Origin: Streptomyces kanamyceticus
Lineage (GTDB): Bacteria > Actinomycetota > Actinomycetes > Streptomycetales > Streptomycetaceae
Direction: 5' to 3'
DNA length: 64,000 nt
Assembly: GCF_008704495.1 (NCBI RefSeq)
Contig: NZ_CP023699.1
Location: forward strand, 1,550,001-1,614,000
The notes under the pieces were generated by a model. That model was not told the DNA's origin and made no database searches. It was given only the letters and a program-made list of their open reading frames with translations. The first letter of the stretch is position 1, and every line of letters begins with the position of its first letter. The translations under genes and the position numbers were made by a program. Shown here piece by piece: positions 5,558 through 49,404 of the stretch.

Positions 5558-5567
5558 CCGGGCCAGG

Positions 5568-6545: not shown

Positions 6546-6594
6546 TTGCCAAACATCATCATTTATCAACTCATCACGCTCATAAGGAAGTTCC

Positions 6595-6933: not shown

Positions 6934-6936
6934 CCC

Positions 6937-9868: not shown

Positions 9869-9871
9869 TCC

Positions 9872-13483: not shown

Positions 13484-13511
13484 CCTCCTCCCCCTCGTTC
13501 CGGAGCACCAC

Positions 13512-33751: not shown

Positions 33752-33805
33752 CGGCCCGCTCAACCCCCGCTCTCATTCGGTCAGTTTCAGTCGTCTTGGC
33801 TGATT

Positions 33806-35216: not shown

Positions 35217-35260
35217 GGTCGTCTCCTGTTCTTGGTCGGGCTCGTGACCGCTTGGCTCGG

Positions 35261-35539
35261 TCACTGGATGTCGTCCGGGTCCGGGGCGGGCGCCCACGTA
35301 CGGCTGCCCGCTGGTTCGAGCCGGGTGAGGGTTGCTATGTCGGCCAGGGGGACGGCGGCGGCCCAGTCGGCGCGGCCGGGGTGGTCGGCGGGCAGGTTGA
35401 GCACGAGGTGTCGGCCGGTCGGGGGGAAGTCCTCGACGATGACGAAGCAGTCGGTGGGATCGGCGTCGATGCTGTTACCCGTCGTGAGCTGGGCAATGTC
35501 CCCGGGCTGGGGACAGTCGGCATGTCGGTCGCATAGCAT
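35261..35539 (-). CDS. small orphan protein with conserved leader
   Basis: A 92-residue protein (MLCDRHADCPQPGDIAQLTT; HLVLNLPADHPGRADWAAAVPLADI) of unknown function. It is preceded by the CTCTCACCAG leader and lies 44 bp before the next gene in the operon. Confidence 0.6.
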   Translation of the reverse strand: MLCDRHADCPQPGDIAQLTTGNSIDADPTDCFVIVEDFPPTGRHLVLNLPADHPGRADWAAAVPLADIATLTRLEPAGSRTWAPAPDPDDIQ

Positions 35540-35713
35540 GGTGGGGTTCTTTCTGGTGAGAGAACACTGACGGCCAGCGCCTTGTTGCCCTTGTGCGCTG
35601 GCCGTCGTCTGTTGTCTGAGGGTGCGTGGCGCCCGCGGGACGCACGGTCGGTCGGAGGTTGCCCGCTCCGCTGACGGCGGGGTAATTAAACCACCTTTGG
35701 GTTGAGCGGGGTG
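35540..35713 (-). promoter_or_regulatory. promoter box and structured leader (divergent member)
   Basis: The -10-like TTTAAT is at 35685-35690 inside TAATTAAA; the -35 position (CACCCC at 35708-35713) is poor. The leader contains GGAGCGGGCAACCTCC, a 12-bp stem at 35569-35580/35595-35606 and then CTCTCACCAG at 35554-35563, ahead of the ATG at 35539. Confidence 0.55.
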
Positions 35714-35740
35714 GGGCCCTGATCCGGACGACGGCGGTCA

Positions 35741-36349
35741 TCAGAAGAGGGCGCCCTGATCTGCGGGGCGTCGGTCCCGGTCGATGGGTGGCCGGGCGAC
35801 GCGGAGTTCGTAGCGGGGGCGTCCCGCGTGCGGAGGAGCGTGAGCTTCGCGGCGGTACCGCCTCCACGCCACGACGGGGGCGCCTTGGTCGATCCAGTCG
35901 GCCGGGTAGCGGGCGGTGTGCTGAGCCCAGCGGCTCCCGCTCCGCGGGACGGCCCATCGGTCCTCGAAGGTGGTGAGCGTCGGCAGCGTCCTCCAGCCGG
36001 GGAACGCATGGTCGTGTGCCTGCTCCACCGCCTCGTTGTCGCCGTCCCCGAACCCGTCGCCGCAGTGGACGGGGCCCTCCCACGGGCACGCGAGACACCC
36101 CCCACGGAACTCCTGCTTCTCCCCCCGGCGGCCGGTCGGCCGGGTGCGGGAGAGCAGGGTCGGGGTGTGGTGTGCGGGCGGGTCCAGTTCGTGGCCGAGA
36201 TCGCTGTACGCGCCGCCGGGGTGTCCGGGCTGGATGTGCCACGCCTGGGCCGCGCTCACGGGTCGGTGGCGTGTCCGCGCGTTGCGCACTCGCCAGTAGT
36301 ACGTCTGCCGTGCCCGTGCTCCGGTCGGCTCGGCGACGGTGGCGGTCAC
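35741..36349 (-). CDS. DUF6349-like protein with CPWEGP motif
   Basis: A 202-residue protein. The central GGCLACPWEGPVHCGD and AHDHAFPGWRTLPTL, followed by YPADWIDQGAPVV, resemble the Streptomyces plasmid/phage family DUF6349. The paired cysteines and histidines suggest metal binding. The start overlaps the preceding stop (ATGA). Function unknown. Confidence 0.7.
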   Translation of the reverse strand: MTATVAEPTGARARQTYYWRVRNARTRHRPVSAAQAWHIQPGHPGGAYSDLGHELDPPAHHTPTLLSRTRPTGRRGEKQEFRGGCLACPWEGPVHCGDGFGDGDNEAVEQAHDHAFPGWRTLPTLTTFEDRWAVPRSGSRWAQHTARYPADWIDQGAPVVAWRRYRREAHAPPHAGRPRYELRVARPPIDRDRRPADQGALF

Positions 36350-36744
36350 GACGTCCTGCTTCCGGCGGCGAGCACTTCGCGGAGCGGGTCCGCGAGCACG
36401 GACTGTTCGTCGGGGGCGTCGAGGAACCGGGGCCCATACGCCCGGCGCACGGCGCGGCGGGCGTCCTGGTGGCGGTCGAGCTCCGGGTAGTACGGCGAGC
36501 GGTCGAGCACGTCGTAGCCGTGCTGGGTGAGCACGTCGGCGATGAGCGATCGGACCTGCACCGGGTCGAGGGCGGTGAGGTCGGTTTCCCCGGGGGCCGC
36601 GAGGAGTACGCGGATCAGCTCGGTCGCGCTGAGCCGGGGGCGGAGGGGAACGCTGAGTCGGTGGACGCCGTCCCGGCTGGGAGTGGCGGCTCCTCGGCGG
36701 CTCGGCGTCCTGGTGGTGCTGCGGTCTTCTGTCGTCTCATCCAT
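36346..36744 (-). CDS. orphan protein upstream of the DUF6349-like gene
   Basis: A 132-residue protein: a Thr/Arg-rich start, then LSVPLRPRLSATELIRVLLAAPGETDL and a helical Asp/Arg-rich end. The first residue is set at the ATG at 36744 because the upstream frame crosses a perfect palindrome and is not coding-like. Coupled to the next gene by ATGA. Function unknown. Confidence 0.6.
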   Translation of the reverse strand: MDETTEDRSTTRTPSRRGAATPSRDGVHRLSVPLRPRLSATELIRVLLAAPGETDLTALDPVQVRSLIADVLTQHGYDVLDRSPYYPELDRHQDARRAVRRAYGPRFLDAPDEQSVLADPLREVLAAGSRTS

Positions 36745-36788
36745 CGTGCTGGCCTTCGATGACTCGGGATGCTGGTGGGCGCCGTGGC

Positions 36789-36816
36789 CTGAGTGACCCA
36801 AATTTGGGTCACTCAG
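36789..36816. promoter_or_regulatory. 28-bp perfect palindrome
   Basis: Half-site CTGAGTGACCCAAA is followed immediately by its exact reverse complement. It lies between two leftward genes, 45 bp before the start at 36744. The absence of a loop and the AAATTT centre fit an operator better than a terminator, but either is possible. Confidence 0.6.
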
Positions 36817-36829
36817 ACCGCGGTGGAGG

Positions 36830-37258
36830 TCAGAACAGGGCATGTTCGGCGCGGGCGGCGGCAGTGCGGAACGCGCGGGCGGCGTCGGCGGCGGTACGTC
36901 CGGGCTCGGCGCTCCACCGGTCGATGACCTCGCGGTGCAGGGTCCTGGCGGCGGTGGGCACGTCGGCGTCGACGGGGTGCCCGGCGAGGGTTTCCGCGAG
37001 GATGGCGAACGCCTGGTCGCGGGCGTGGTTGATGCGGTCCCAGTCGTACGTCCGGCCAGCGGCTCCCCGGCCGTGGCCGGCGGCGACGTCGAGGGCGCCG
37101 CGCGGCCAGCACGGCAGTGTGGCCGTACGGCCGGGACCAGCGAACAGACGCGGGCCCTGGTGGATGCCGACGTGTTCGATGTGGCGGGCGGCCCATTCCA
37201 GGATCGCGGCTGGGGTGTCCGCGATGACGATGCTCTCGGGGATGTGGCGGGTCGGCAC
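36830..37258 (-). CDS. DUF6197-like protein
   Basis: A 142-residue protein. TPAAILEWAARHIEHVGIHQG, the LPCWPRGALDVAAG segment and the C-terminal WSAEPGRTAADAARAFRTAA match the layout of DUF6197 proteins of Streptomyces plasmids. The GTG at 37258 has GAAGGA 7-12 bases upstream. A frameshifted relative lies at 48.0-48.5 kb. Confidence 0.65.
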   Translation of the reverse strand: MPTRHIPESIVIADTPAAILEWAARHIEHVGIHQGPRLFAGPGRTATLPCWPRGALDVAAGHGRGAAGRTYDWDRINHARDQAFAILAETLAGHPVDADVPTAARTLHREVIDRWSAEPGRTAADAARAFRTAAARAEHALF

Positions 37259-37282
37259 GGTGCTGTCCTTCGGGAAAGGCAA

Positions 37283-37307
37283 GGGCGGCGGCGGGCTGCC
37301 GCCGCCC
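37283..37307 (-). terminator. terminator hairpin
   Basis: 10-bp perfect stem GGGCGGCGGC with a 5-base loop, 14 bp after the stop of the gene at 37322. Confidence 0.65.
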
Positions 37308-37321
37308 CCGGGGTCGGGCTG

Positions 37322-37972
37322 CTAGTGGTAGGCGGGGATCAGTCGGCGGACCTTGTCCTCTCCGATGCACCCGCCCTTGTGGCGGCGCGCGCTCGGCGGC
37401 TCTCCGTTGCGCCCGCGCAGGTGTGACCAGAACTTCGGGCCCTCCCACGGGCACAGTTCACAGCTGAGGAACCAGTGGTTGTCGCTGCCGGGGAAGCCGG
37501 TGAGGACTGCCCGCCAGTGGTGGGCCGCGAGTCCGGCGAACGCGATCTGCGCGCCTTCGATGTTGCGATCGTTGACCGGCATCCGCGGGTGCAGGAGGGG
37601 TACCGGCCCGCACAACGGCGTCGGGGCCTCGGCGATCACCTGGTCCAGGGGCACGGTGCCGATCCGACCGGCGGCGTACTCCTCGGCGAGATGGGCGGCG
37701 GCCATGTCGGTGCCGGGGGTTCCCTTGGGCGGGCGGCGGAGGTTGCGTTCGCCCGCGGTGGTGAGGACGAGCCAATCCCGGTGCCACCGGTAGGCGCGGC
37801 CGATGACCTGGTCTTCGCCAACGATCACGGAGTATCGGCACTGAATGTCGGGGGTGCCAACGCGGTACGTCGAGACGGTGGTGCTGCCCCCCGTCGCGGG
37901 GACGATGAGCCTGCCCACTTCGGTGTCGGGGACGGTGATGGTCGCGGGTCGTTCGAGGAGTTGCGTGGTCAT
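37322..37972 (-). CDS. orphan protein with C-terminal CPWEGP metal-binding motif
   Basis: A 216-residue protein. The N-terminal half is beta-rich (VSTYRVGTPDIQCRYSVIVG; AYRWHRDWLVLTTAGERNLR). Near the C-terminus SCELCPWEGPKFWSHLRGRN and ARRHKGGC carry Cys and His residues and repeat the CPWEGP signature of the gene at 35741. The ATG at 37972 follows the CTCTCACCAG leader. Function unknown. Confidence 0.6.
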   Translation of the reverse strand: MTTQLLERPATITVPDTEVGRLIVPATGGSTTVSTYRVGTPDIQCRYSVIVGEDQVIGRAYRWHRDWLVLTTAGERNLRRPPKGTPGTDMAAAHLAEEYAAGRIGTVPLDQVIAEAPTPLCGPVPLLHPRMPVNDRNIEGAQIAFAGLAAHHWRAVLTGFPGSDNHWFLSCELCPWEGPKFWSHLRGRNGEPPSARRHKGGCIGEDKVRRLIPAYH

Positions 37973-38043
37973 GGTGGTGCCCTGTTCTGGTGAGAGAGGG
38001 GCCCGCCCCGGCGCGTTCGGCCGCCGGGGCGGGCAGGGCGTGG
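37973..38043 (-). promoter_or_regulatory. structured leader (hairpin plus CTCTCACCAG)
   Basis: A 13-bp perfect stem (38001-38013 / 38022-38034) is followed by CTCTCACCAG at 37988-37997 and the ATG at 37972. There is no promoter box, so it is probably transcribed from upstream. Confidence 0.6.
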
Positions 38044-39438
38044 TTACGCGGCCTCGGCCGGGGCCTGCGGGACAGTGGCCCACTCGCGGCGCGGGGTGAT
38101 GCCCAGCTCGTCCAGGACCGGGGCGTGGCTGCCGTTGTCCGGGACCCACTCCCAGTCGGCGCCCTCGGTGCCGGGCTGTTCGGTCCAGGTGAGCATGTAG
38201 GAGCGGCCGGAGGTGCGGGGGTCGCCGCACACTGCCTGTGCCTCGCGGCGGGTCATCGCCCACAAGGCTCGCTTGCGACGGCGCGGGGAGTTCTTCGAGG
38301 CGATCAGCACCAGCGCCATGCCGTCCAGCCAGCTCGCGCCCGGGGCGGGGGCCGCTGCGGCGGTCGGCTCCTCGACTCGTACCGGTTCCTCGACCGCCGG
38401 GGACTGCTCGGCTGGCGACTGCGGTTCAGTGGCCGGATCCTGGGGCGGCTGCTGCATCTCGTCGGCGCTCTTACGTCCGGATACTCCGTCGTAGGGGGCG
38501 GTCCATGTCCAGTTGTCGTGCTGGTTGCCGGTGGCGCGGACGATGCGCTTGCCGGTGCCGTTGTGGATGTGCGGGATGGTCACGGACTTCGGGTTGGCCC
38601 GGAGGACCTCGTACCAGGTGCCTCGGTAGAGAACGAAGTCACCGCGCTTGAAGTCGGCCCGCGACCACACCTTGAAGCCCTCGGCTTCGGCGTCCTTGAT
38701 GACCTTCTCCCAGTGGGCGATCTCCTCGGTCAGCTCCTGGTGCTCGATCTCCAGCTCCGGGTCTGCCGGGTTCCGGGAGAATCCCTTGGCGGACTGGCCG
38801 CGCTGCCACTTCTCGACCGCGCGGAGGTCGGCCCGCAGCTTGTCGAGACGGCGGAGCGTGCGGCCGGGGTCCTTCTTGAACTGCTGGTAATTCGCGGCGG
38901 CTTGTGCCCGGCCGGTCCAGTGGGCGGCGCGGTCGCGCTCGCCGATGCTCTTGCGCATCGCGTCGTCCATCCGCGCATGATCGCGGCGGGCGCGGCCCTC
39001 GGAGTGGTGACCGATGAGGATCGGTTGCCCCCCAGCGAACCGCTCGGATATGTCGTGGCTCTTCTTCCACGCGGTCTCGGAGTTCCGGGCGGCGGCATCG
39101 GCGTATCCAGCGAACCGCTCGGCGCGGCCCTCGGCCCGCTCGACGCGGTCTTGCTCGGCCTCGGCGAAGCTGCGGCGGTCGGTGTCGTCGATGGTGACGG
39201 TGACCTCGAACCCCTCTGCGCGGAGCCGTTCGGCTAGGGCTTCCAGCATCGGCGGGGAGGTGCGCTTGTCGCGGCTGTAGGGGAGGTACCAGCACCCGAG
39301 GTTGCGCGACCACTTGGCGAGCGTGGTGTATCCGGATGCGTAGTGGCGGGTCCGGAGGACTTCCTTCGATCCGTCGTTGCGGCTCGTGCCCTCGATGAGG
39401 GTGCCTTCGCGGCGGGTGTGGGTGATCTCGATAGTCAC
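38044..39438 (-). CDS. DUF3560-domain protein
   Basis: A 464-residue protein. The first ~70 residues (VTIEITHTRREGTLIEGTSR; LGCWYLPYSRDK) and the helical part with RAERFAGYADAAARNSETAW and GQPILIGHHSEGRARRDHAR are typical of DUF3560 proteins found on actinobacterial plasmids. A long coiled coil follows, then a beta segment (KRGDFVLYRGTWYEVLRANP) and a Pro/Glu-rich tail. GTG 39438 is chosen from the conserved leader. DNA or RNA metabolism is plausible, not shown. Confidence 0.8.
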   Translation of the reverse strand: MTIEITHTRREGTLIEGTSRNDGSKEVLRTRHYASGYTTLAKWSRNLGCWYLPYSRDKRTSPPMLEALAERLRAEGFEVTVTIDDTDRRSFAEAEQDRVERAEGRAERFAGYADAAARNSETAWKKSHDISERFAGGQPILIGHHSEGRARRDHARMDDAMRKSIGERDRAAHWTGRAQAAANYQQFKKDPGRTLRRLDKLRADLRAVEKWQRGQSAKGFSRNPADPELEIEHQELTEEIAHWEKVIKDAEAEGFKVWSRADFKRGDFVLYRGTWYEVLRANPKSVTIPHIHNGTGKRIVRATGNQHDNWTWTAPYDGVSGRKSADEMQQPPQDPATEPQSPAEQSPAVEEPVRVEEPTAAAAPAPGASWLDGMALVLIASKNSPRRRKRALWAMTRREAQAVCGDPRTSGRSYMLTWTEQPGTEGADWEWVPDNGSHAPVLDELGITPRREWATVPQAPAEAA

Positions 39439-39768
39439 TGAACTGGTCTTTTCTGGTGAGAGTTTGTGGTCCGGCCGCAGGGCGGACCGTGCGTTGGCAG
39501 CGGCGCTGCACCACCGGCGCGGGCCGTGAGGGACGATCGGCTCGCGGGTCGTCGCGCCTGCGCGACGACAGGGGCAGTCGCGCCCCCGCGGGGCGCGTCC
39601 GCTGCGGTCCGGTGCCCGTCGTCGGTCGGCGGAGCCGCCTGCGGCGGAGCCGGCCGACGACGGTGAACGCACCGGACTTGTCCTGCCGCCCCGAAGGGGT
39701 GTCCGCTGGGGTGCTGGGGGCCTGCCGGTCCGGAGGGTTGCCCTCCCCCGGACCGGCAAGGCTGGGTG
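39439..39768 (-). promoter_or_regulatory. 330-bp structured noncoding leader
   Basis: No ORF is supported. Reading leftward it holds a 10-bp perfect stem with the AGGGCAAC loop (39724-39733 / 39748-39757), a 14-bp stem with one G-U-type mismatch (39617-39630 / 39649-39662), a 10-bp stem (39548-39557 / 39560-39569), a small GGTCCG stem and CTCTCACCAG (39453-39462) just before the GTG at 39438. Confidence 0.6.
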
Positions 39769-40188
39769 TCAGCTGCGGTGGAGCGTGTGGCGGGCGGTCG
39801 GGTCGGCGTCGGCAAGGCCGGTCCGCTCGCGCCATGCCTGGCGGACGGCGGCGCGGAGCGCGTCTCCGTCGTCGTAGGCGAACCGGCCCCGGCGCAGGCT
39901 GCGGACGATGTCGCGGAACGTGTCCTGGTGCATCGTGGTGAGCGTGTCATCCAGCGGGGTCAGCTCGTGCGGGAACATCGCCTGGACCGAGTCGCCCGGC
40001 TGCGGCGCACCGAGGGTGAAGTACCAGACCACGGACATGGTGGCCTCGTCCGCGAACTCCGAACCGCCGAACGGGCCGACGACGGCGGGGCGGGTGTCGA
40101 GCTGGTGGCCACGGAACCAGGGTCCGGCGATCACGAGCGTCGCGGTGGGGAAGTCCTGGACGGTGGGCTTCTGGTCGGTGGCGAGCAT
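39769..40188 (-). CDS. orphan plasmid protein
   Basis: A 139-residue protein (DFPTATLVIAGPWFRGHQLD; ATMSVVWYFTLGAPQPGDSV; TTMHQDTFRDIVRSLRRGRF) with an alpha+beta appearance and no recognised domain. ATG 40188 follows CTCTCACCAG and an AGGGA motif. Function unknown. Confidence 0.6.
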   Translation of the reverse strand: MLATDQKPTVQDFPTATLVIAGPWFRGHQLDTRPAVVGPFGGSEFADEATMSVVWYFTLGAPQPGDSVQAMFPHELTPLDDTLTTMHQDTFRDIVRSLRRGRFAYDDGDALRAAVRQAWRERTGLADADPTARHTLHRS

Positions 40189-40312
40189 GTCGTATCCCTG
40201 TCTGGTGAGAGGTTCCGCCGGGGCCGGTCGGCCCCGGCGGGGGTGTCGGTCGGGGGGTTGCCCTCCCCCTTCCGATACCATTAATTAAACCATGTTATTG
40301 GGTTCGGGTCAA
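40189..40312 (-). promoter_or_regulatory. TTAATTAA-type promoter and structured leader
   Basis: -35 TTGACC (40307-40312), 17-bp spacer, -10 TTTAAT (40284-40289). The leader has GGGGGAGGGCAACCCCCC hairpin A, a perfect GCCGGGGCC/GGCCCCGGC hairpin B and CTCTCACCAG (40202-40211). The -35 contains the stop codon of the upstream gene. Confidence 0.75.
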
Positions 40313-41163
40313 CCGGTCACGGCAAGTTCGCGGCGGCGCTCGGCGGCGGCCCGGACGGTGCTTGCGATGGCGCGTCCGGTCTCGATGGCCCGTACGGCGG
40401 ACTCGTGAACCGGGGGCTTCTTGCCGTCGGTGATGATGCCCGCGAGCGGCGGCATGACGGCGGGGCCCGGAGTGATTCCGAGGATGAGCGCGGCGACGTG
40501 GGCGGCGGACGCAACTTCCGCTTCGCGCTGCCCGTACACGGGGGCGTCAAGTTCGCTGATGCGCTGAAGCGCCGCGTTGTAGAGGTGGAGGCGTACGGCG
40601 TAGTCGCACTCCCCGTCGGCGTCGGGTATGCCGTCGGCCCCGGAGATGGCGGCCCAGACTTCTTCGACGGTGAACCGCGCGGGCGTGGGCGGCTCATAGG
40701 CGTCGCCGTCGGTCTGGCTGATGTCGAAAACCGGCCCGGCCTTGAAGCCGGACACCTTGCGCGCCTCACCCCCGGCGGCCTCCTCGGCGGCCTCTCGCTG
40801 CCCGCCGTCGGCGACTGCGGTCGTGGCCTCCTGGCCCCCCTCGGGCCGCCGCTTGATCGGCGTCCAGATACGGAGCGAGGTGGAGCCCTTGGCGGGGAAG
40901 CGTCCGACCTTCCGCCAGTCGCCGGAGCTGAGTATGTGGGTGGCGTTGGGGTGCTGGGCGGCGACGGCAATGCAGTTGGTGGGGCTGCGGTCGTCACGGT
41001 CCGTGTGGGTGAGGTTCGCGGCCGTGCGCATGACGGCGGTCCAGAAGTCTTCGCTGCTGACCATCGCGCCGTACGCACGATCCATGACGGCTTCGAGTTC
41101 ACCGCGCATCTTGGCGGAGTAGGCCCGGCGCTCTTCGTCGGTCATCTTCGGCTTACGGGGCAT
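40309..41163 (-). CDS. ArdC-like ssDNA-binding protein
   Basis: A 284-residue protein. Residues about 30-105 (FWTAVMRTAANLTHTDRDDR, SPTNCIAVAAQHPNATHIL, SGDWRKVGRFPAKGSTSLRI and WTPIK) follow the pattern of the N-terminal ArdC domain, a ssDNA-binding fold in plasmid antirestriction and transfer proteins. A variable linker precedes KVSGFKAGPVFDISQTDGD. The usual C-terminal metalloprotease motif of ArdC is absent. It could protect incoming ssDNA. Confidence 0.75.
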   Translation of the reverse strand: MPRKPKMTDEERRAYSAKMRGELEAVMDRAYGAMVSSEDFWTAVMRTAANLTHTDRDDRSPTNCIAVAAQHPNATHILSSGDWRKVGRFPAKGSTSLRIWTPIKRRPEGGQEATTAVADGGQREAAEEAAGGEARKVSGFKAGPVFDISQTDGDAYEPPTPARFTVEEVWAAISGADGIPDADGECDYAVRLHLYNAALQRISELDAPVYGQREAEVASAAHVAALILGITPGPAVMPPLAGIITDGKKPPVHESAVRAIETGRAIASTVRAAAERRRELAVTG

Positions 41164-41285
41164 GTCGCGGTCCTCCTGGTGAGAGATGAGCATCCGGGGT
41201 CGACTGACCCTCGGGGTGCCGGTCGGGGGGTTGCCCTCCCCCTTCCGGCGCCATTAATTAAACCATGTTATTAGGTGATCGGCAA
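41164..41285 (-). promoter_or_regulatory. TTAATTAA-type promoter and structured leader
   Basis: -35 TTGCCG (41280-41285), 17-bp spacer, -10 TTTAAT (41257-41262). Hairpin A (GGGGGAGGGCAACCCCCC), hairpin B (CCGAGGGTC/GACCCCGG arms) and CTCTCACCAG at 41178-41187, then GGAGGA and the ATG at 41163. Confidence 0.75.
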
Positions 41286-41289
41286 CCTT

Positions 41290-41649
41290 CTAAATCCAGT
41301 ACAGCCCTGCTTCGTTGCTCGCGGCGCGGTATGCGGCTATAACCTCGTCCTCTATTCGCGTCCAGCGTTCGAGGATATCGGGGGCGGTCTTCTTGTCGCT
41401 GGCCGCACGCGTGGCCCTGCGCCACTCAATGGCGATTTTGAGTGTGCGGAGTTGGGAGCGGGTGAGTTCCCATCGGCCGGAATCCGGGAGTTCATTACCG
41501 TAGGCCATCCCAACGGCGTTGTTGATGTGCTCGGTACCGGACCACACGTTATATGCGGACTGGAGCGCAAGGGCGCGTTTGAGGGTGCACCGTAGGTGCG
41601 GGGCCTGCACGATCCATTGCGGTTCGATCGTGAATACGTCGGCGCTCAT
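41290..41649 (-). CDS. orphan helical protein
   Basis: A 119-residue protein (LKRALALQSAYNVWSGTEHI; TRSQLRTLKIAIEWRRATRA; DILERWTRIEDEVIAAYRAA). It is noticeably richer in AT than its neighbours. A leader with a perfect 10-bp GGCGGCGCGC stem and a variant CTCCCCAG precedes the ATG. Function unknown. Confidence 0.55.
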   Translation of the reverse strand: MSADVFTIEPQWIVQAPHLRCTLKRALALQSAYNVWSGTEHINNAVGMAYGNELPDSGRWELTRSQLRTLKIAIEWRRATRAASDKKTAPDILERWTRIEDEVIAAYRAASNEAGLYWI

Positions 41650-41709
41650 CCTGGGCCTTTCTGGGGAGGGCGGCGCGCCGGGCAGCGCGCCGCCACAACG
41701 CGCAGGGAA

Positions 41710-42342
41710 TTAGAGGGTGTATCCGTCGACGTACTCGCCGCGCTCCCCCTCGGGGGTCTGGACGTGGGGCAGGAATCGACTCACCGCGAATACGACGGCG
41801 TCCGCGATGATCCGGGGCGCGTCATTGAGTACGAGACTCACAGTGTCGCCGTCGAGTCCGATACGGACTTCGCCCGGCTCAAGATCCATGTAGACAAAAG
41901 CGGTTGTGCCGTCGATTCGGGTTCGCGCTCCGGGGAGTCGGGCGGAGAGATCGCATGCGGCTTCCTCAACGTCCCGGCGCATTTCGGCCTGTGCGCGGTT
42001 GTGGTCCTTCACGCGCTCGTGAACGTCACGGTGCGCGGGGATGAGATCGGCGGCGATCCGGGCCGCGATGTCCGCCGGGTCCTCGCTCATGGCGACTCGG
42101 ACCGTGTCGCGCTCGCCCCTGCGGAACGGGTAGTCGGTGGTGGGGAATGCGCCCCGGATGTGCAGGTGTCCGGGGTCGTCGAACCGCTCGGACAGGTGGA
42201 GCTGTCGGCCGTCCAGGTGCGTGAACGTGGCGGCGTGGTCCAGTTCCTGGATGCCGTGGCGCGCGGGCTGCGGTCGCCAGTTCCCGCCGAGTTCGAGGGC
42301 GATCGGGTGGGACAGCTTCGCGACGGTGAGAGGCGTGTTCAT
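41710..42342 (-). CDS. orphan plasmid protein
   Basis: A 210-residue alpha+beta protein (DHAATFTHLDGRQLHLSERF; ITARIAADLIP-type helix; GTTAFVYMDLEPGEVRIGLD) with no recognised domain. Start at 42342 lies 10 bases after CTCTCACCAGGAG, which here also supplies the ribosome binding site. Function unknown. Confidence 0.6.
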   Translation of the reverse strand: MNTPLTVAKLSHPIALELGGNWRPQPARHGIQELDHAATFTHLDGRQLHLSERFDDPGHLHIRGAFPTTDYPFRRGERDTVRVAMSEDPADIAARIAADLIPAHRDVHERVKDHNRAQAEMRRDVEEAACDLSARLPGARTRIDGTTAFVYMDLEPGEVRIGLDGDTVSLVLNDAPRIIADAVVFAVSRFLPHVQTPEGERGEYVDGYTL

Positions 42343-42459
42343 CGTCCGTCTCCTGGTGAGAGTGGGTGTCGGCGGCCGGTCGGCCCGCCGTTCGCCGGTT
42401 GGGGGTTGCCCTCCCCTTCCGACATTACTAATTAAACCGCGTTATAGGGGGTGGCGCAA
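42343..42459 (-). promoter_or_regulatory. TTAATTAA-type promoter and structured leader
   Basis: -35 TTGCGC (42454-42459), 17-bp spacer, -10 TTTAAT (42431-42436). Hairpin A GGGGAGGGCAACCCCC, hairpin B GGCGG/CCGCC and CTCTCACCAG at 42353-42362. Confidence 0.7.
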
Positions 42460-42771
42460 CCCGGATGCGGGCTCTGACCTGCTCTTTTCTACCCCCGTCG
42501 ACCCGCACCTGTTCGGCCGGGCCCGGCCACAACGGGCCTGGGCGGGGTTCCCTCCTCGGTCGGACAGCTCCGCCGTATCAGGGTTCCGGGCGCGGTGTCC
42601 TGGCTCGCGTAGCGACCGCGTAGCGGCTCGGCCTGGACGCCGTGTCCGGGTTCCTGGTACGCCCCTTGGGGTGTCCGGCCGAGGAGGGAACCCCGCCTTC
42701 ACCCGCACCACAACGTTCCTGCACCCGACCGACCAGCCCTCTCCCCCTCCGAGGAGGACCCGCCGGAGGCA
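42457..42771 (-). repeat. long-hairpin intergenic element, copy 1
   Basis: About 315 bp between the gene ending at 42852 and the promoter. It contains 25-base inverted arms at 42541-42565 and 42673-42697 with one G-U-compatible mismatch, and imperfect inner arms between them. Blocks next to the promoter and at the far end match copy 2 at 49402-49746. Confidence 0.65.
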
Positions 42772-42851
42772 ACCTGATCGCTCTCGCCGACACCCAACGG
42801 AGCTGTTCGCCGGATCGTGGTTGGTCGGGTCGCGCCTCGGATGCGTCGCCG

Positions 42852-43961: not shown

Positions 43962-44329
43962 GGGTGTTCCTCGGGGTCTCGGTGGTGCGGTCGGCGACGT
44001 GCCGTACCGCCGTCGGGGAGATGCCGCCCGTCATCGTGCGGAGCGCGATGGACAGTGCCGTCGTGCCCGCAGGGCACGTCCGTTGGCCCGGCGTCCGGAC
44101 GGGGCGGGAAGGCCGCCTGCGGCCTGGACGTCCCGGCCGGCTGCGAGCCGGGCCATGCTGAGCCATCCCCGCGGGACGTCCTTTTGCATTCCGGTGCGAC
44201 GGCCGCCGCTGACTCCGGGGGCTTGTTCGGCGGTGGGCGCGCGGGGTGCGGGCGGCTCGATGCCGCCCGCACCCCAGTCCCGGCGGCCAGGGTCCGGCCG
44301 GGCGGTGGCGGTCCGCCCGGCCGGTGGTC
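43962..44329 (-). terminator. GC-rich intergenic region with two strong hairpins
   Basis: A 368-bp gap without a supported gene. A 10-bp perfect stem GGCCGGGCGG/CCGCCCGGCC (44296-44305 / 44313-44322) directly follows the stop of the gene at 44330 and is a likely terminator. A 13-bp stem lies at 44243-44255 / 44263-44275. Smaller stems include GTGCCC-GCA-GGGCAC. Confidence 0.6.
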
Positions 44330-45547
44330 TTACGCTGCGGCTAGCTCGCGCTCGGCGACGCGGCACCGGGTCAGTACGGTCTGCGTGACCTCGCCGTAGG
44401 TGCTGTGGTCCTTGACCGTGCCGGTGAGCTGGACCTCGTCGTCCTTGTCGGGCACGTTGGCGGCGCTGCTGAACCAGACGTACACGTTGCCTTCCGGGTC
44501 CTGGAACTTGACCAGTCGGCGGCGCTGGGCGTGGTAGCCGTAGTGGCGCTCTTCCAGCTCGATCACGGTCGTCACGGTGGCGGTGACGGTGAGCCGTTCT
44601 CCTTTGGTGCCCTGCGGCTTCGAGTTGCGGGCGGCGCGCTCGGCGGCGGCCTGCTCCTGGTCGCGGTGCCATCCCGCGATCGCGGAGACAAGGGTGGGGA
44701 GGTGGCGCGGGTCGACGGTTTCCGCCTTGGCCAGCTGGCCGACCTTGTGGCGGTAGTCGTTCAGGCTGCCGTATCCCTGGACGGCCCATTCCCTGACGGC
44801 GGCGGCCGTGGCGGTCGCGTCGGGCTCGGCGTCGATGTCCGCGCGCCACTCCATCGGGGCCTTGCGGCTGAAGAAGTACGCCTCGACTCCGTCTGCGGTC
44901 GGGGACTTCGCCCACTGCTCGGAACGGCTGTAGAAGCGGCCTTCCTGGGCCACGATCGCGGCGGTCACCCGGAGCACCTCGACCACGGGGACGCGAAGAT
45001 CGTCGGGGAATCCACCCTCGCTGTCGTCCCAATCGGAGTCCTTCAGCTTGCCGAACCGCCACAGCGCCTCAAGGCCCTTGATCGGAAGTCCGGTGTACGG
45101 CTCCACGCAAGTGGTGCCCAACTGCCGATACTCGCCGCTGTCGTGGCGGGCAAGGTAGGTCGCGGTTCGGTGCCGCGCGATGTTGCAGCCGTGGCAGACG
45201 TTCGCGGTCATCCGCTGTGCGCTCGCCTCGGCGGCGAGCTGCTCGGGCAGTCCGGGGAACAGGCTGAGGAGCGTCTCGCCCTCCTCGTCGTGGTCCAGCC
45301 GGGCCACGACCGTCCAGCCGCTGTGATGCGGGATCTCCCCGAAGATCGTCACGGTGACCGTGGGCCGCTGGCCGACGATGCGGCCGTCGTACGGATCCTT
45401 GTAGTCCGCGAGGAACGGCGCGGAAAAGTCGAGCTGGTAGCCGGTGAGTCCGTGGACGGCGGCGCGGGTGTTGGTGGTCTCGACGAGCTGACGGACGCGG
45501 CGGGCAGACGTGGCCGGGACGTCGAAACGCATGGCTGCGCTGTTCAT
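44330..45547 (-). CDS. zinc-motif / OB-fold-like plasmid protein
   Basis: A 405-residue protein. A zinc-type site ANVCHGCNIARHRTATYLAR followed by YRQLGTTCVEPYTG resembles a protein family shared by phages and conjugative plasmids. The C-terminal ~90 residues (LTVTATVTTVIELEERHYGY; NVYVWFSSAANVPDKDDEVQ; LTGTVKDHSTYGEVTQTVLT) look like an OB-fold, hinting at single-strand nucleic acid binding. ATG 45547 follows the CTCTCACCAG leader and AGGAG. Confidence 0.7.
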   Translation of the reverse strand: MNSAAMRFDVPATSARRVRQLVETTNTRAAVHGLTGYQLDFSAPFLADYKDPYDGRIVGQRPTVTVTIFGEIPHHSGWTVVARLDHDEEGETLLSLFPGLPEQLAAEASAQRMTANVCHGCNIARHRTATYLARHDSGEYRQLGTTCVEPYTGLPIKGLEALWRFGKLKDSDWDDSEGGFPDDLRVPVVEVLRVTAAIVAQEGRFYSRSEQWAKSPTADGVEAYFFSRKAPMEWRADIDAEPDATATAAAVREWAVQGYGSLNDYRHKVGQLAKAETVDPRHLPTLVSAIAGWHRDQEQAAAERAARNSKPQGTKGERLTVTATVTTVIELEERHYGYHAQRRRLVKFQDPEGNVYVWFSSAANVPDKDDEVQLTGTVKDHSTYGEVTQTVLTRCRVAERELAAA

Positions 45548-45710
45548 CGTGGGTACTCCTGCTGGTGAGAGGTGATGAGCGCCCGGCCGGGCGGGTTGCC
45601 CTCCGCGTTCGGCCGGACCTGGTGGGCCGCATGCGGCCCGGTGGTCGGAGGGGGTGTTGCCCTCCCCCTCCAACATCATTAATTAACCCATGTTTTGAGG
45701 TGTGGGGCAA
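45548..45710 (-). promoter_or_regulatory. TTAATTAA-type promoter and structured leader
   Basis: -35 TTGCCC (45705-45710), 17-bp spacer, -10 GTTAAT (45682-45687). Two AGGGCAAC-loop hairpins, a CGCCC/GGGCG stem and CTCTCACCAG (45563-45572). The stop codon of the upstream gene lies inside the -10 element. Confidence 0.7.
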
Positions 45711-46105
45711 ACATCGCGACCGGGGATGTCCAGTGCAGCGCGGTCTCTCAGGAACGCGGCGAACAGGGCGGCGGTGCAGCTGTCGGCAGTGCCGTAGGTG
45801 CGCCGACATTCCAGGGCTCCGATGCGCTCGCCTCGGTGCTGAACGGGGAACGGCTGACCGGGTGCGGGGATAGCGAGTGCGTACAGTCCGCGCGGGGTGT
45901 CCACCCACAGCACGACGGCGGCGGCCTCGTGGTCGTAGGCGGCGGACCAGCGGGCGGGCCCGATGCCGAACTCCGCGAGTCCGCCCGCGATGGCGCGGGC
46001 CTGCATGATGTCGGCCGTGGTGCCGGGGCCGGGCTCGGCGGGGGCGGGGACACATCCGCAACCGTGGTCGTCGGCGTGGGTCTCGAACAGAGCTGTACGG
46101 GTCAC
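45683..46105 (-). CDS. orphan plasmid protein ending inside a promoter
   Basis: A 140-residue protein starting GTG after CCAGGAG. It has a Cys pair near the N-terminus (HGCGCVP), ITPQARAIAGGLAEF-type helices, and a C-terminal ECRRTYGTADSCTAALFAAF. Its last residues, CPTPQNMG, are encoded by the spacer and -10 of the next promoter. Function unknown. Confidence 0.6.
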   Translation of the reverse strand: MTRTALFETHADDHGCGCVPAPAEPGPGTTADIMQARAIAGGLAEFGIGPARWSAAYDHEAAAVVLWVDTPRGLYALAIPAPGQPFPVQHRGERIGALECRRTYGTADSCTAALFAAFLRDRAALDIPGRDVCPTPQNMG

Positions 46106-46170
46106 TGCGTGGCTCCTGGGGCGGCCGGGGCAGGTGCGTTTCCCGCCCCGGCGTAGTACGGCTGAGGGTC

Positions 46171-47919
46171 TTAGGCGGCGGCCGCATCGGCGGCGGGCTG
46201 TTCGCCGTCGGCGGGCATCTGGTCGGCCTGCTCGGGTGCAGCGCTGGCCGTGATCGCGGCGCGCTTCTTCTTGTACGGGTCGTACGGCTCGTCGTCCTTG
46301 ACGGCCTGCTCGATGGGGGTGAGCTGGTATCCGAGCGCTTCGAGGATCTCGAACCACCTTCCGGTGGGGTTCCGTGCCCACGGGGCCCGTTGGGCATCGG
46401 TCCGCCATGCGGAGCGGGTCGCGTGCTTTTCCCGCACTGCCGCGAGGGCGGCCCACTGGAGTTGCACGGCGCGGCGGGGGTCCTTGGCGACGTGGTCGGG
46501 GAAGTTCGTGCGGTACTTCGCCTTGTCGCCGGTGATACCGAGCAGGGTTGCCAGGATCTCGGTCGTGGGCTCCTTGTTCAGGTCGTCGCAGATGCCCCAA
46601 GTACCCGCGAGCAGAGCCGCGTTGATGTGCGCGGTCAAGGTGTTGGTGGTGTCCTTGGGGAGGTTGCGCCGCTTGACCATGTCGGCGAGCCACTGGCGGC
46701 GCCTGCCCTCAGCCGCGTCCCATTCCAGGTTCCCCTTCTTGACGGCTGCGCGGGCGGCCTTCTCCGCCTCCTTCTCGGCGGCGTTCTTCGTCCCGTTGCC
46801 GCCCAGGGAGCTGCCGGGTTCGGCGTGGCCGTACAGGACGGGAGAGGTGCAGTACGGCTTCAGCTTCTCGTCGTCATCCTCCTCCAGCACCCATACCTGA
46901 CCTTGGCACTCGGCGTGATCCTCGGTGGTGATGCGCTCCCCGTCGGGGGTCCTGAGCCTCCATACCGGGGTGGCCCGTTCGGACAGCTCCGTCATGTCCC
47001 GGACCTTCTGCCCGGCCTTCTCCAGCTCGGCGCGGTGAGCCTCGGCCTTCGCCTGCTTCTCGCGCTTGGTCCGCTCGATCTGGATGGTCCAGTCGATCTC
47101 GTCGGCGGCGTCTTCGTCTTCTGCGGCCTTGGTGATCGCGGTGAGCGCCTCGGCGTCGTCGGCGAACTCGCTGAGGGCGGCCAATTGGTCGAAGGTCCAT
47201 GCGTAGGCGGAGTTCGCGACGGCGCCGCTCAGGGCCTTGTCGTTCTTGACCTTGACGACGGTCTTGACGTCCTTCTGCCGCACCCCTGCGGCCTTGGCGA
47301 TACGACCCACTTGGGCGCCCGCTTCGGCGGCACTGAACATCGCGGCGGTCATCTCGCCCTGTGTCAGGGGCTTGCGGTGCTGGGCGGTCGTGATCATGTC
47401 GAGGAACTGCCCGGCGGCGTCGCGGTCGTCATCCTCCCACTCGTAGGGGAGGTGGGTGAGCCCGGCGTCCTGGCCCCCGAAGTAGCGACGGTTTCCGTCG
47501 TTGACCTGGAGGACTCCGCCGTCAAGTCGCTGGATCTTGACGGGAATGCGGCACCCCTCGCAGCGGAGAGAGTCCACGAACGGCGCGTTGATGTCGAGAT
47601 CTTCGCGGGCGTTCTCCGGGTGCGGAGTGAGCGCGTCAATCCGAATGACCGGGCGAGGCGTGACCGGCACGGCCTCAAGTCCTGCGGCGAGTGCGGCGGC
47701 GAGACGCTGGAAACCGTCGATGATCTGCGGCACGTCGCCATGCGTCCGCACGACGTACAGCGGCTCGACGACGCCGTTGCCCTTCACGTCGGCGAGCAGA
47801 TCGGCCGGGGCCTCGATGTCGCGGAAGTTGCCGGGGTGCGCGGCGAGCTCGGCGGCCGCAAGGGTCGGCCACGGGGCAGGGGCAGTCTGGACGCTGGCCT
47901 GGGTCTTGACGTTGGTCAT
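46171..47919 (-). CDS. ParB/Spo0J-like protein with two ParB N-domains
   Basis: A 582-residue protein. Residues about 18-75 (AELAAHPGNFRD, VVEPLYVVRT, QIIDGFQRLAAALAAG) and about 88-150 (ALTPHPENAREDLDINAPFV, GCRIPVKIQ, LQVNDGNRRYFGG) are two consecutive ParB nuclease-like domains. A helical HTH-type part follows (MTAAMFSAAEAGAQVGRIAK, AAGVRQKDVKTV) and then an Ala/Glu-rich tail with a Cys-containing segment. Such proteins regulate plasmid partition or transfer. No ParA gene is nearby. ATG 47919 is chosen from the leader. Confidence 0.85.
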   Translation of the reverse strand: MTNVKTQASVQTAPAPWPTLAAAELAAHPGNFRDIEAPADLLADVKGNGVVEPLYVVRTHGDVPQIIDGFQRLAAALAAGLEAVPVTPRPVIRIDALTPHPENAREDLDINAPFVDSLRCEGCRIPVKIQRLDGGVLQVNDGNRRYFGGQDAGLTHLPYEWEDDDRDAAGQFLDMITTAQHRKPLTQGEMTAAMFSAAEAGAQVGRIAKAAGVRQKDVKTVVKVKNDKALSGAVANSAYAWTFDQLAALSEFADDAEALTAITKAAEDEDAADEIDWTIQIERTKREKQAKAEAHRAELEKAGQKVRDMTELSERATPVWRLRTPDGERITTEDHAECQGQVWVLEEDDDEKLKPYCTSPVLYGHAEPGSSLGGNGTKNAAEKEAEKAARAAVKKGNLEWDAAEGRRRQWLADMVKRRNLPKDTTNTLTAHINAALLAGTWGICDDLNKEPTTEILATLLGITGDKAKYRTNFPDHVAKDPRRAVQLQWAALAAVREKHATRSAWRTDAQRAPWARNPTGRWFEILEALGYQLTPIEQAVKDDEPYDPYKKKRAAITASAAPEQADQMPADGEQPAADAAAA

Positions 47920-48040
47920 CGGACTTTCGCTTTCTGGTGAGAGTTCGTCGGGCCATTCGGCCCGGTGAAGGTGCCGGTCGGGGGGTTGCCCTCCCCCTTC
48001 CGACGTCATTAATTAAACCATGTTCTTGGAGGTGGGGCAA
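47920..48040 (-). promoter_or_regulatory. TTAATTAA-type promoter and structured leader
   Basis: -35 TTGCCC (48035-48040), 17-bp spacer, -10 TTTAAT (48012-48017). Hairpin A GGGGGAGGGCAACCCCCC, hairpin B CGGGCC/GGCCCG and CTCTCACCAG (47934-47943). It overlaps the 3' end of the upstream reading frame. Confidence 0.75.
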
Positions 48041-48470
48041 CTGCGGCTGCCGTGTTCGCCGATACCCAGGGACAGGGCTGCGGCGGCGCGGATCATCTCG
48101 GCCGCCTCGGCGGCGGTCCGCTCGGGTTCGTCACCCCAGCACCACAGCATGGTGCGCCGGTAGGTGTCCTCGCTGAGCTTCAGCTTTCGCCACCGCACGC
48201 CGGACACAGGACGGCCGTTGATGTGGTTGGTGAGCACCACAAGGGAGTCGGCAAGGGCTCGGTGGAAGTTGTCCCACGGTTCACCGCGCACGGACCACCG
48301 GGGCCGGGTGGAGCGTACGCCGCGCTCCCATGCGTGCAGCACGGGGCGGTGTCGGCCATCCGGCCGGGCTGCCAGAGGTGGTCGCCCTGGTAGAGGCCGA
48401 CGCGTTCGATGTGGTCGGCTGCGGCAGCGAGGATGCGGGCGGGGGTGGCCGGTGGCTTTCGAGACGGCAC
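48013..48470 (-). pseudogene. DUF6197-like gene with a frameshift
   Basis: The N-terminal frame from GTG 48470 reads PATPARILAAAADHIERVGL, YQGDHLWQPGRMADTAPC, then loses sense. A second frame continues the family pattern with PWDNFHRALADSLVVLTNHI and ends WGDEPERTAAEAAEMIRAAA...CPTSKNMV. Both halves align with the intact relative at 36830-37258. The shift falls around 48270-48340. It is either a real decay event or a sequencing error. AGGAGG lies 7 bases before the GTG. Confidence 0.65.
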
Positions 48471-48547
48471 GATCATGCCTCCTAGGGGTAGGTCGCGGGT
48501 TCGGTGACCGGGGGCGGCGGACGACCGCCCCCGGGCCTCGACGGGGC

Positions 48548-49288
48548 TTACGCGGATATGGATCCGGCCGTGGATCGGCCGATCCGCTTGCCGCCGATGT
48601 CTGCGCGGCTTCCCGCGACCCAACCGGCTCCGTAGCCGTTGCCGGTCACGGTGGTCGTGCCGCCCTTGCGTGAACGCGGGTAAGCCTGCTGGTAGTTGCG
48701 GGAGACAACGGTCTTGCGGTCGGCGAGCACCAGGGCCGCACTGCGGCCGGTGGCGGCGGTCTCTGCCCTGGCCTCGTCGCGCGCTCCGCGCTCGGCCTGC
48801 TCGATGCGGTCGCCAATGCGGTTGATGAAGCCGAGGAGCCAGGAGCGGCGCCATGCGCGCGCACCCTGCCCGCCCGGGACCGACTGCGCGGCCAGACCGC
48901 CGTTCATCTGGAGGAGAAGGGAGGTGTAGAGCAGTTCGACCCGCTCAAGGTCGCTCGCGTACCCGAAGATGTGGACCCGGCGACCCGGGCCGCCGCCGTC
49001 CCGGCCGAGGTGGATGAGCTTGCAGCCGAGAGCGAGCGCGATGCGGTTGACGAGGCGGACCCGCTCCATCGCCCACGGGTTGTCCAGAACGATCTGACGG
49101 TCCGTCGGGGCGTCGCTGCCAGGCTTGGCGTCGTTGAGCATTGCCTGCTCGACGCCGTACTTCGCCATCATCTCGAACGCCCGCTTCCGGGCCAGCTCCG
49201 CTTCCGACTCCGGCGTACGGGGGTCTTCCGCCTTGGCGAGCAGGGCGCGGATGGTTTCGAGCTTCGCGGGGACCTTGGTCTCGTTCAT
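48548..49288 (-). CDS. DUF2786-domain protein
   Basis: A 246-residue protein. The N-terminal 45 residues (KLETIRALLAKAEDPRTPES; FEMMAKYGVEQAML) are the DUF2786 signature found in plasmid, phage and actinobacterial proteins. The middle (ALALGCKLIHLGRD, RRVHIFGYASDLERVELLYT, SLLLQMN) and the basic C-terminus are conserved in such proteins. It starts the long leftward backbone. Function unproven. Confidence 0.8.
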   Translation of the reverse strand: MNETKVPAKLETIRALLAKAEDPRTPESEAELARKRAFEMMAKYGVEQAMLNDAKPGSDAPTDRQIVLDNPWAMERVRLVNRIALALGCKLIHLGRDGGGPGRRVHIFGYASDLERVELLYTSLLLQMNGGLAAQSVPGGQGARAWRRSWLLGFINRIGDRIEQAERGARDEARAETAATGRSAALVLADRKTVVSRNYQQAYPRSRKGGTTTVTGNGYGAGWVAGSRADIGGKRIGRSTAGSISA

Positions 49289-49404
49289 GTGCGTTCTCCT
49301 GGTGAGAGAGGTTGTCGGCGGCCGGTCGGCCCGCCGGTGCCGGTCGGGGGTTGCCCTCCCCTTCCGACATAATTAATTAAACCATATTCTAAGGGTTGGG
49401 TCAA
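49289..49404 (-). promoter_or_regulatory. TTAATTAA-type promoter and structured leader (best example)
   Basis: -35 TTGACC (49399-49404), 17-bp spacer, -10 TTTAAT (49376-49381). Hairpin A GGGGAGGGCAACCCCC, hairpin B GGCGG/CCGCC, then CTCTCACCAGGAG at 49296-49308 and the ATG at 49288. Confidence 0.8.

What the first reader, a model, noticed from the sequence alone, without database searches (positions are those of the whole stretch)
35540..49375. Modular 5' leader RNA shared by about ten plasmid genes, with covarying hairpins
Between promoter and start codon the same parts recur: hairpin A with a GAGGGCAACC-type loop, hairpin B whose sequence differs from gene to gene but whose pairing is kept (for example GGCGG/CCGCC, GCCGGGGCC/GGCCCCGGC, CGGGCC/GGCCCG, a 13-bp GCCCGCCCCGGCG stem, a 12-bp GACGGCCAGCGC stem), then CTCTCACCAG 8-20 bases before the ATG/GTG (starts at 49288, 47919, 45547, 42342, 41163, 40188, 39438, 37972, 35539; variant CTCCCCAG at 41649). 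Changing sequence with constant pairing argues for a selected RNA structure. It is not an RNA family I recognise and could be a translational switch common to the whole backbone.
Basis: partly seen in the sequence, partly recalled or inferred. Interest (0 to 1): 0.9.

Follow-up and report, generated by a model that had tools for sequence, protein, structure and literature searches.

The report
Plasmid-specific RNA leaders of conjugation genes
In Streptomyces mobile elements, many genes of the block next to the DNA-transfer gene begin with a similar small RNA hairpin and the same short tag before the ribosome site, and each element uses its own version of that tag, which points to an undescribed way of controlling many of its genes together.

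Summary
Nine minus-strand genes (35.5-49.3 kb) carry CTCTCACCAG 10-14 nt before the start codon; seven also have a sigma70-type promoter followed at once by a hairpin with a GGGCAA loop. The tenth copy (41649) is not convincing. The copy is not on a free plasmid: it lies in a 10.1-Mb contig near T4SS and TrwC-relaxase genes.

Relatives occur on Streptomyces plasmids and one Kitasatospora plasmid. Hairpin A keeps its pairing while its letters change (86 double-changed cells against 9 in shuffles); no Rfam family matches. Elements differ in dialect of loop and pre-SD tag (CTCTCACCAG, CTTCACGA, CTCAACGA, CCACCAACA, CCTTCAAC, CTCGAAACC). One plasmid has 40 tags in its leader region, none on the other strand. 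Hairpin plus tag also precede genes without a promoter, so the unit acts per cistron, in RNA. In 20 of 20 elements where a relaxase was found on the same contig, it lies on the same strand and nearest downstream, as expected for a leading region.

I read it as an RNA-level establishment regulon. A trans-acting factor is inferred, not found; a purely cis-acting leader is the main rival.

The parts
49286..49404 (-). Leader of the DUF2786 gene (start 49288): -35 49399-49404, -10 49376-49381, hairpin A 49338-49369, hairpin B 49316-49336, tag CTCTCACCAG 49299-49308
   Evidence: gene family
47917..48040 (-). Leader of the ParB_N gene (start 47919): -35 48035-48040, -10 48012-48017, hairpin A 47973-48004, hairpin B 47949-47964, tag 47934-47943
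   Evidence: gene family
45545..45710 (-). Leader of the 405-aa gene (start 45547): -35 45705-45710, -10 GTTAAT 45682-45687, hairpin A 45644-45674, hairpin B 45624-45639, second GGGCAAC hairpin 45582-45620, tag 45562-45571
42340..42459 (-). Leader of gene 42342: -35 42454-42459, -10 42431-42436, hairpin A 42394-42423, hairpin B 42370-42390, tag 42353-42362
41161..41285 (-). Leader of gene 41163: -35 41280-41285, -10 41257-41262, hairpin A 41218-41249, hairpin B 41194-41214, tag 41176-41185
40186..40312 (-). Leader of the DUF6409 gene (start 40188): -35 40307-40312, -10 40284-40289, hairpin A 40242-40279, hairpin B 40215-40240, tag 40202-40211
   Evidence: gene family
39436..39757 (-). Region before the DUF3560 gene (start GTG 39438): GGGCAAC hairpin 39723-39757, no promoter of this type, hairpin 39468-39488, tag 39453-39462
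   Evidence: gene family
37970..38034 (-). Leader of gene 37972 without promoter: 13-bp hairpin 38001-38034 (no GGGCAAC loop), tag 37987-37996
35537..35690 (-). Leader of the DUF6211 gene (start 35539): -10 35685-35690 without a clear -35, hairpin A 35647-35675, hairpin with inner GGGCAAC 35569-35606, tag 35553-35562
   Evidence: gene family
41647..41694 (-).
34563..35297 (-). ORF of the HTH-like protein (likely start 35216), the most widely shared family in the leader regions compared
   Evidence: no Pfam family
29306..33763 (-). TrwC-type (MOBF) relaxase with helicase domains, downstream of the leader genes on the same strand
5382..14960 (+). T4SS region: SLT plus NlpC/P60 protein 5382-6545, VirB4-like ATPase 11395-12831 (weak AAA_10 match), TraG/VirD4-type coupling protein 13251-14960

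Best explanation
An undescribed family of per-cistron RNA leaders serves many genes of the relaxase-proximal (probably leading) region of Streptomyces T4SS plasmids and integrated elements. A unit is a hairpin with a 5-8-nt apical loop around KGGMA (AGGGCAA, AUGGCA(G), CGGGAA), in some dialects a second hairpin with a mostly GACC/GAAC loop, then a C/A-rich tag upstream of the Shine-Dalgarno, 6-29 nt before the start codon. First genes of operons have it directly behind a sigma70-type promoter; inner genes have it alone. Most likely mechanism (inferred): one factor, made by the element or the host, recognises loop and tag and sets translation or stability of these mRNAs together, so that establishment genes (ArdC-like, DNA methyltransferases, ParB_N-like, others) are made in a burst in the new host and then held down. 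All copies in one element must match the same factor, which keeps them alike. Shown: anatomy, covariation, per-cistron placement, dialects, orientation. Inferred: leading region (oriT not mapped), the factor, the timing.
For: Covariation: 97 distinct rows, 92.7% of cells paired, double changes in all 11 pairs, 86 such cells against 9.2 shuffled and 8-20 slid. Sense hairpin more stable than its complement in 75 of 85; 70 G-U against 37 A-C cells (43 against 34 without the pair 16-58). KGGMA-loop hairpin within 90 nt upstream of 172 of 231 tags in 22 elements against 16.6 in shuffles. Tags: 138 sense, 0 antisense in the leader regions of 13 elements. Promoterless units. Relaxase same strand and nearest downstream in 20 of 20. 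Cargo: ArdC, methyltransferases, ParB_N.
Against: No factor found: no protein family is in every element (best 14 of 17), RapZ_C is not universal. The tag is not more exposed than scrambled tags (0.63 against 0.60). In W06 only 34 of 62 annotated leading-region CDS have the tag within 60 nt. 11 of 123 ORFs with any tag near their start have only another dialect's tag. A6 was fitted to the model and its rows are related. Expression and timing are untested.
Confidence: 0.45

Rival explanations
1. A purely cis-acting expression cassette: a 5'-terminal or intercistronic hairpin that stabilises the mRNA plus an unstructured C/A-rich stretch that helps the ribosome dock. No dedicated factor; copies within one element resemble each other through duplication and gene conversion.
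For: The hairpin follows the promoter at once; no common plasmid factor was found; in the window the leaders at 42342 and 49288 are 82% identical over 111 nt, so copying happens.
Against: Loop and tag stay constant while stems change, which copying alone does not explain; a generic cis enhancer would not need a different constant tag in each element.
Confidence: 0.35
2. Transcription-level establishment regulon: an element-encoded DNA-binding protein (for instance the three-HTH-like protein at 34563-35297) represses the shared promoters, as Reg does on p576; the RNA hairpins are secondary.
For: Near-identical promoters within an element; the HTH-like protein is the most widely shared family, 14 of 17 elements and 9 of 10 dialect groups, one of them (W06) only by a short partial match.
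Against: Units without promoter carry the same loop and tag; covarying stems and sense-strand bias point to RNA.
Confidence: 0.12
3. Single-stranded DNA promoters or priming sites on the transferred strand (Frpo/ssi-like).
For: Orientation fits a T-strand template if oriT lies by the relaxase gene (20 of 20); long inverted repeats stand upstream of some leaders.
Against: On the folded T-strand the -35/-10 boxes are not consistently paired (0.14-0.71 over 45 leaders of 5 elements); hairpin A lies downstream of the promoter; some units have no promoter; sense-RNA bias.
Confidence: 0.05

Closest known systems
EGeRS1 of Bacillus plasmid pLS20 and kin (PMC8708921: abstract, parts 1-2 of 3 of the Results and section 4.1 read)
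   Same: Repeated structured sequences just upstream of the RBS of establishment operons, more alike within a plasmid than between plasmids, mechanism stated as unknown
   Different: EGeRS1 is 420-750 bp, 4-5 copies per plasmid, without a detected promoter, and the transferred strand is the non-template strand; here about 100 bp, up to 40 copies, sigma70-type promoter in part of the units, promoterless units too, and inferred template strand
EGeRS2 / Reg of p576 (same paper)
   Same: Several promoters of establishment genes sharing one sequence
   Different: EGeRS2 uses heptamer operators for an RHH repressor; no such operator was recognised here by eye (not searched), and the constant parts lie in the RNA
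Frpo / ssi single-stranded promoters (PMC11541004: passages read)
   Same: Leading-region genes, hairpins, orientation
   Different: In Frpo the promoter is inside the hairpin; here it is outside and not consistently paired in ssDNA
SAS/ESAS of cluster K mycobacteriophages (PMC3203893 and PMC12699233: passages read)
   Same: Short conserved string at many gene starts, with inverted repeats upstream in about half; role unproven
   Different: Phage, not conjugative; SAS is GGGATAGGAGCCC and ESAS a fairly conserved 17-bp inverted repeat; here stems vary and loop and tag are constant
T4 RegA, MS2 coat protein (recalled, no call)
   Same: One protein binding many RBS regions, or a hairpin with a fixed loop
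   Different: No such protein has been identified here

Membership tests
Any Rfam 15 family | Match at the gathering score | tested here: not met
   0 matches in the window and in L040, L006, L008, L005, L002, L045; the four sub-threshold matches in 35-50 kb do not fall on the leaders, the best (MIR839) lies on the long inverted repeat at 49467-49688
Frpo/ssi ssDNA promoter | -35 and -10 inside a fold-back stem of the transferred strand | tested here: not met
   Pairing probability 0.14-0.71, not consistent
Frpo/ssi ssDNA promoter | Transcription from single-stranded DNA | not testable with these tools
   needs an experiment
EGeRS1 | 400-750-bp conserved multi-hairpin region without promoter before establishment operons | tested here: not met
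   Units are about 100 nt and 7 of 9 in the window have a promoter
EGeRS2 | Promoter flanked by TTATCCC dual motifs bound by an RHH repressor | not tested
   motif and RHH gene not searched for
SAS/ESAS | GGGATAGGAGCCC at gene starts | not tested
   not searched as such; none of the 9 window leaders printed shows it
Leading region of a conjugative element | Genes on one strand, ahead of and co-directional with the relaxase gene | tested here: met
   20 of 20 elements where both lie on one contig; several elements are close relatives
Leading region of a conjugative element | Anti-restriction, methyltransferase and similar genes next to a mapped oriT | tested here: inconclusive
   ArdC N-terminal domain, ArdC and methyltransferase annotations, ParB_N; oriT not mapped
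Cis-regulatory RNA in general | Pairing kept through changes on both sides | tested here: met
   orthologous hairpin B stems; R-scape not available

The most novel reading that the evidence does not exclude
A plasmid-private RNA code: each conjugative element marks the mRNAs of its establishment region, up to about 40 genes, with its own loop-plus-tag signature read by a dedicated RNA-binding factor, so that the incoming element's genes are translated as one regulon, insulated from host and rival elements. It would be the first large post-transcriptional establishment regulon that I know of (recall plus the paper searches, which listed none).
Probability: 0.3. Interest if true: 0.9.

Novelty: new variant of a known kind. 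Interest (0 to 1): 0.77.

Why it matters
How transferred DNA gets its protective genes made in time is known for a few plasmids (ssDNA promoters, a repressor); for pLS20 the authors state that the mechanism is unknown (PMC8708921). Here the regulatory unit is small, repeated up to 40 times in one plasmid, and comes in natural dialects on many comparable elements. That makes cause and effect testable by swapping one loop or one tag. The tag also offers a sequence-only way to list candidate establishment genes in Streptomyces elements, many of which have no known function.

Tried and rejected
Tested and not supported: SD masking by the tag (SD-tag pairing 0.19 against 0.23 for scrambled tags, above the scramble in 57 of 181 copies from 17 elements; but in the window dialect 4 of 5 elements lie above it, the window itself 0.46 against 0.32 over 6 copies, so it is not excluded there). 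A fully complementary antisense sRNA on the plasmid (whole records of 5 plasmids: no exact antisense tag in W04, W05, W06, W07, one in W01; one-mismatch copies in each; not tested in the others). RapZ_C as common factor (W04 and W06 but not W01, W02, W03, W05, W07; only the chromosomal copy in the window's genome). ssDNA promoter. Special openness of the tag (0.63 against 0.60; above the scramble in 88 of 146). Phage origin: the viral scan gave one contig with an AT-rich unrelated context, the phage collection none (one leader). A first hairpin-B script cut off the 5' arm and gave mean z -1.3 over 37 segments; one search replaced it after I had seen that result.

Led nowhere: paper searches for a Streptomyces counterpart and for the long inverted repeat; the library holds open papers only. 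Structure prediction, fold search and the large protein search were not used.

Caveats on counts: elements are not independent (window, W01, G006, G023, G025, G085 and G113 share one dialect; W06/G103 and W05/G547 share theirs; W03 holds its element twice). The loop pattern was written down after seeing W02-W07; in nine elements added later (W08, W09, W10, W12, W14, G061, G103, G111, G547) it scored 69 of 93. Some counted loops are not the intended one (for example GTTGGAA 4 times in W06 and 5 times in G103). W01 scored 1 of 6, W09 1 of 4. W11, W13, G571, G167, G225 and the second G113 contig were left out because I had no clear tag. In one search 136 of 138 tags have a start 4-45 nt downstream, but a random position does so in 44-55%, so the narrow spacing is the informative part. 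The 68 homologous pairs were chosen because both members carry their own element's tag; 4 also contain the partner's. Some of the 85 rows are not promoter-type hairpins. Relaxase position could not be judged for W05 (no hit) and G547 (hits on other contigs) and was not searched in G111, G113, G167, G225, G571, G099, G142, G157. On circular records 'nearest downstream' means the shorter way round (W02, W08, W13, W14, G103). R2 over plasmid records also gave weak opposite-strand matches; all at E 1e-4 or better are on one strand per record. That the window's genus is Streptomyces is inferred: unnamed contig G103:C3 has the length, 125,386, of Streptomyces xanthii plasmid NZ_CP061283.1.
Full report
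What is in the sequence. On the minus strand between 49.4 and 35.5 kb nine genes carry CTCTCACCAG 10-14 nt before their start codons. Seven of the nine have, about 90-150 nt before the start, a promoter-like pair: -10 TTTAAT (once GTTAAT) preceded by TGG or once CGG, with a TTG-type -35 17 nt upstream in six of the seven. Hairpin A follows at once, so it would sit at the very 5' end of the transcript (inferred from usual spacing). Its usual form is GUCGG-AA-GGGG(G)-A-GGGCAAC-CCCC-GA-CCGGC; at 45547 the internal loop is replaced by Watson-Crick pairs. Hairpin B follows, with a variable stem and a mostly 4-nt loop (GACC, GAAU, AGUC). The genes at 39438 and 37972 have a tag and a hairpin but no such promoter. 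The window is bases 1550001-1614000 of a 10.13-Mb contig. It holds T4SS genes at 5-15 kb and a TrwC relaxase at 29.3-33.8 kb, and a tyrosine recombinase lies 9.7 kb beyond its right end. So it is probably an integrated conjugative element; its ends were not mapped.

Chance. Tag and promoter strings are far above shuffles. In the whole genome there are 18 exact tags, 9 of them here, against 8 for the pattern read backwards. The GGGAGGGCAACCC core with three mismatches allowed is not enriched. Single-leader folding scores are modest for most; the case for structure rests on comparison.

Relatives. BLAST with one leader found 9 plasmid records, 8 Streptomyces and 1 Kitasatospora. Queries from five of those records found 2, 14, 8, 3 and 2 records, their own included and overlapping. 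A covariance model of promoter plus hairpin A (R1) matches 8 of 295 genomes of the window's genus; one built from all dialects (R2) matches 14 of 295 and 3 of 394 class-wide genomes, all three in that genus (strict filters lose weak matches). Rfam has no match at gathering score.

Structure. Over 119 matches (97 distinct rows) 92.7% of cells pair. All 11 pairs show changes on both sides, with 86 such cells against 9.2 in shuffles and 8-20 when partners are slid. The alignment was fitted to the model and rows are related, so this leans in favour. Orthologous hairpin B stems of the 40188 gene change in step: CCGCCGGGGCC/GGCCCCGGCGG in the window, CCGCCGGGGTC/GACCCCGGCGG in G006, CCGTCGGGGCC/GGCTCCGACGG in G113. 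The RNA sense is favoured: sense hairpin more stable than its complement in 75 of 85, the complement in 9; 70 G-U against 37 A-C cells, of which 27 G-U come from one pair.

Dialects. Tags found: CTCTCACCA(G) (window, W01, G006, G023, G025, G085, G113), CTTCACGA (W02), TTCACACC (W14), CTCAACG(A) (W03, W07, W10, W12, G111; less clear in W09), CCTCAAC (W08, G061), CCACCAACA (W04), CCTTCAAC (W05, G547), CTCGAAACC (W06, G103). In the leader regions of 13 elements 138 tags lie on the sense strand and none on the other; start codons follow after 6-29 nt in 136. In W06 (NZ_CP108495.1) 42 exact sense copies exist, 40 of them in the 46 kb upstream of mobF; 34 of 62 annotated plus-strand CDS there have a tag (one mismatch allowed) within 60 nt, against 1 of 1000 random stretches elsewhere. 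There, inner genes have a different stem (CCGGGGCGGCGG-AUGGCA-CCGCCGCCCCGG) but the same kind of loop and the same tag as the promoter-type units. Over 22 elements 172 of 231 tags have a hairpin with a KGGMA loop within 90 nt upstream; 16.6 are expected from shuffles. Among 68 homologous gene pairs between dialects, chosen because each member carries its own element's tag, only 4 also carry the partner's; 11 of 123 ORFs with any tag near the start have only a foreign one. So the signature mostly follows the element, and it is a per-cistron RNA feature rather than a promoter feature.

Where in the element. In 20 of 20 elements with leaders and a relaxase on one contig, the relaxase gene is on the same strand and nearest downstream, whether TrwC type or PF03432 type (window, G006, G023, G025, G085, G061, G103, W01-W04, W06-W14). 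Relaxase genes usually lie next to oriT and are transferred last (recalled), so these genes are probably the leading region with the transferred strand as template. Cargo fits: ArdC-like proteins, methyltransferases, ParB_N proteins. The 405-aa protein (44330-45547) looks like an OB-fold protein by eye only; no family matched it.

Mechanism. Shown: conserved loop, conserved tag, covarying stems, per-cistron placement, element-specific signature, one-strand clustering before the relaxase. Inferred: control of translation or mRNA life by a factor that reads loop and tag. Tests of simple alternatives are in Tried and rejected. The most widely shared gene family of these regions is the HTH-like protein at 34563-35297 (14 of 17 elements, 9 of 10 dialect groups). 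It looks DNA-binding by eye (other rows), so it may serve promoters or oriT rather than the RNA. I give about 0.9 to the anatomy, 0.8 to the leading-region reading, and 0.4 to a dedicated trans factor.

Known relatives. The nearest published idea is EGeRS1 of pLS20 (PMC8708921): structured leaders before the RBS of establishment operons, alike within a plasmid, mechanism unknown. This is the same kind of thing but compact, per-cistron, promoter-linked and far more numerous. Frpo (PMC11541004, passages) fails on promoter placement. SAS/ESAS of cluster K phages (PMC3203893, PMC12699233, passages) is the closest in form, a start-site string plus upstream inverted repeat, with different sequences and also without a proven role. 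Streptomyces ICEs with relaxase and T4SS are described in PMC9513070 (passages), where the passages seen say nothing of leaders.

Noticed in passing
window 42541-42697 and 49486-49673: Long inverted repeats (arms 26 nt at 96% and 76 nt at 78%) stand about 100 nt upstream of two leader promoters, 7 kb apart. Similar repeats precede 2 of 5 or 2 of 7 leaders in G006, G023, G025, G085 and 5 of 12 in W05 and G547, but 0 of 15 in W06, 0 of 3 in W03, W04 and W07; 28 plasmid records have a match, 10 seen. Could be a second-strand start site or terminator; not resolved.
   Followed up: partly
window 37322-37972: A leader-bearing gene whose homologues occur in 14 of 17 leader regions (8 of 10 dialect groups), with a Cys/His-rich C-terminal part; no Pfam or NCBIfam match.
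   Followed up: partly
L052:6701-7141 and L052:12616-13008 (NZ_CP108495.1): Two stand-alone RapZ C-terminal (RNA-binding adapter) domains in the leader region of a conjugative plasmid.
   Followed up: partly
window 58459-61359: Cas3 helicase/nuclease gene (HD, C-terminal domains) to the right of the leader region.
   Followed up: no
window 26201-27160: Protein with a weak match to the MvdD pre-ATP-grasp domain, below cut-off; perhaps a RiPP (graspetide-type) gene.
   Followed up: no
G000:C1:1624530, about 10.5 kb right of the window: An exact CTCTCACCAG on the opposite strand, about 250 nt past the tyrosine recombinase domain match.
   Followed up: no
CP109196.1 (W03): The 136,312-bp plasmid record seems to be a head-to-tail dimer: relaxase and leader matches recur about 68.2 kb apart.
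   Followed up: no
NZ_CP108495.1 (W06): Recorded as linear, but the leader region runs on from one end of the record to the other without a break, as in a circular molecule.
   Followed up: no
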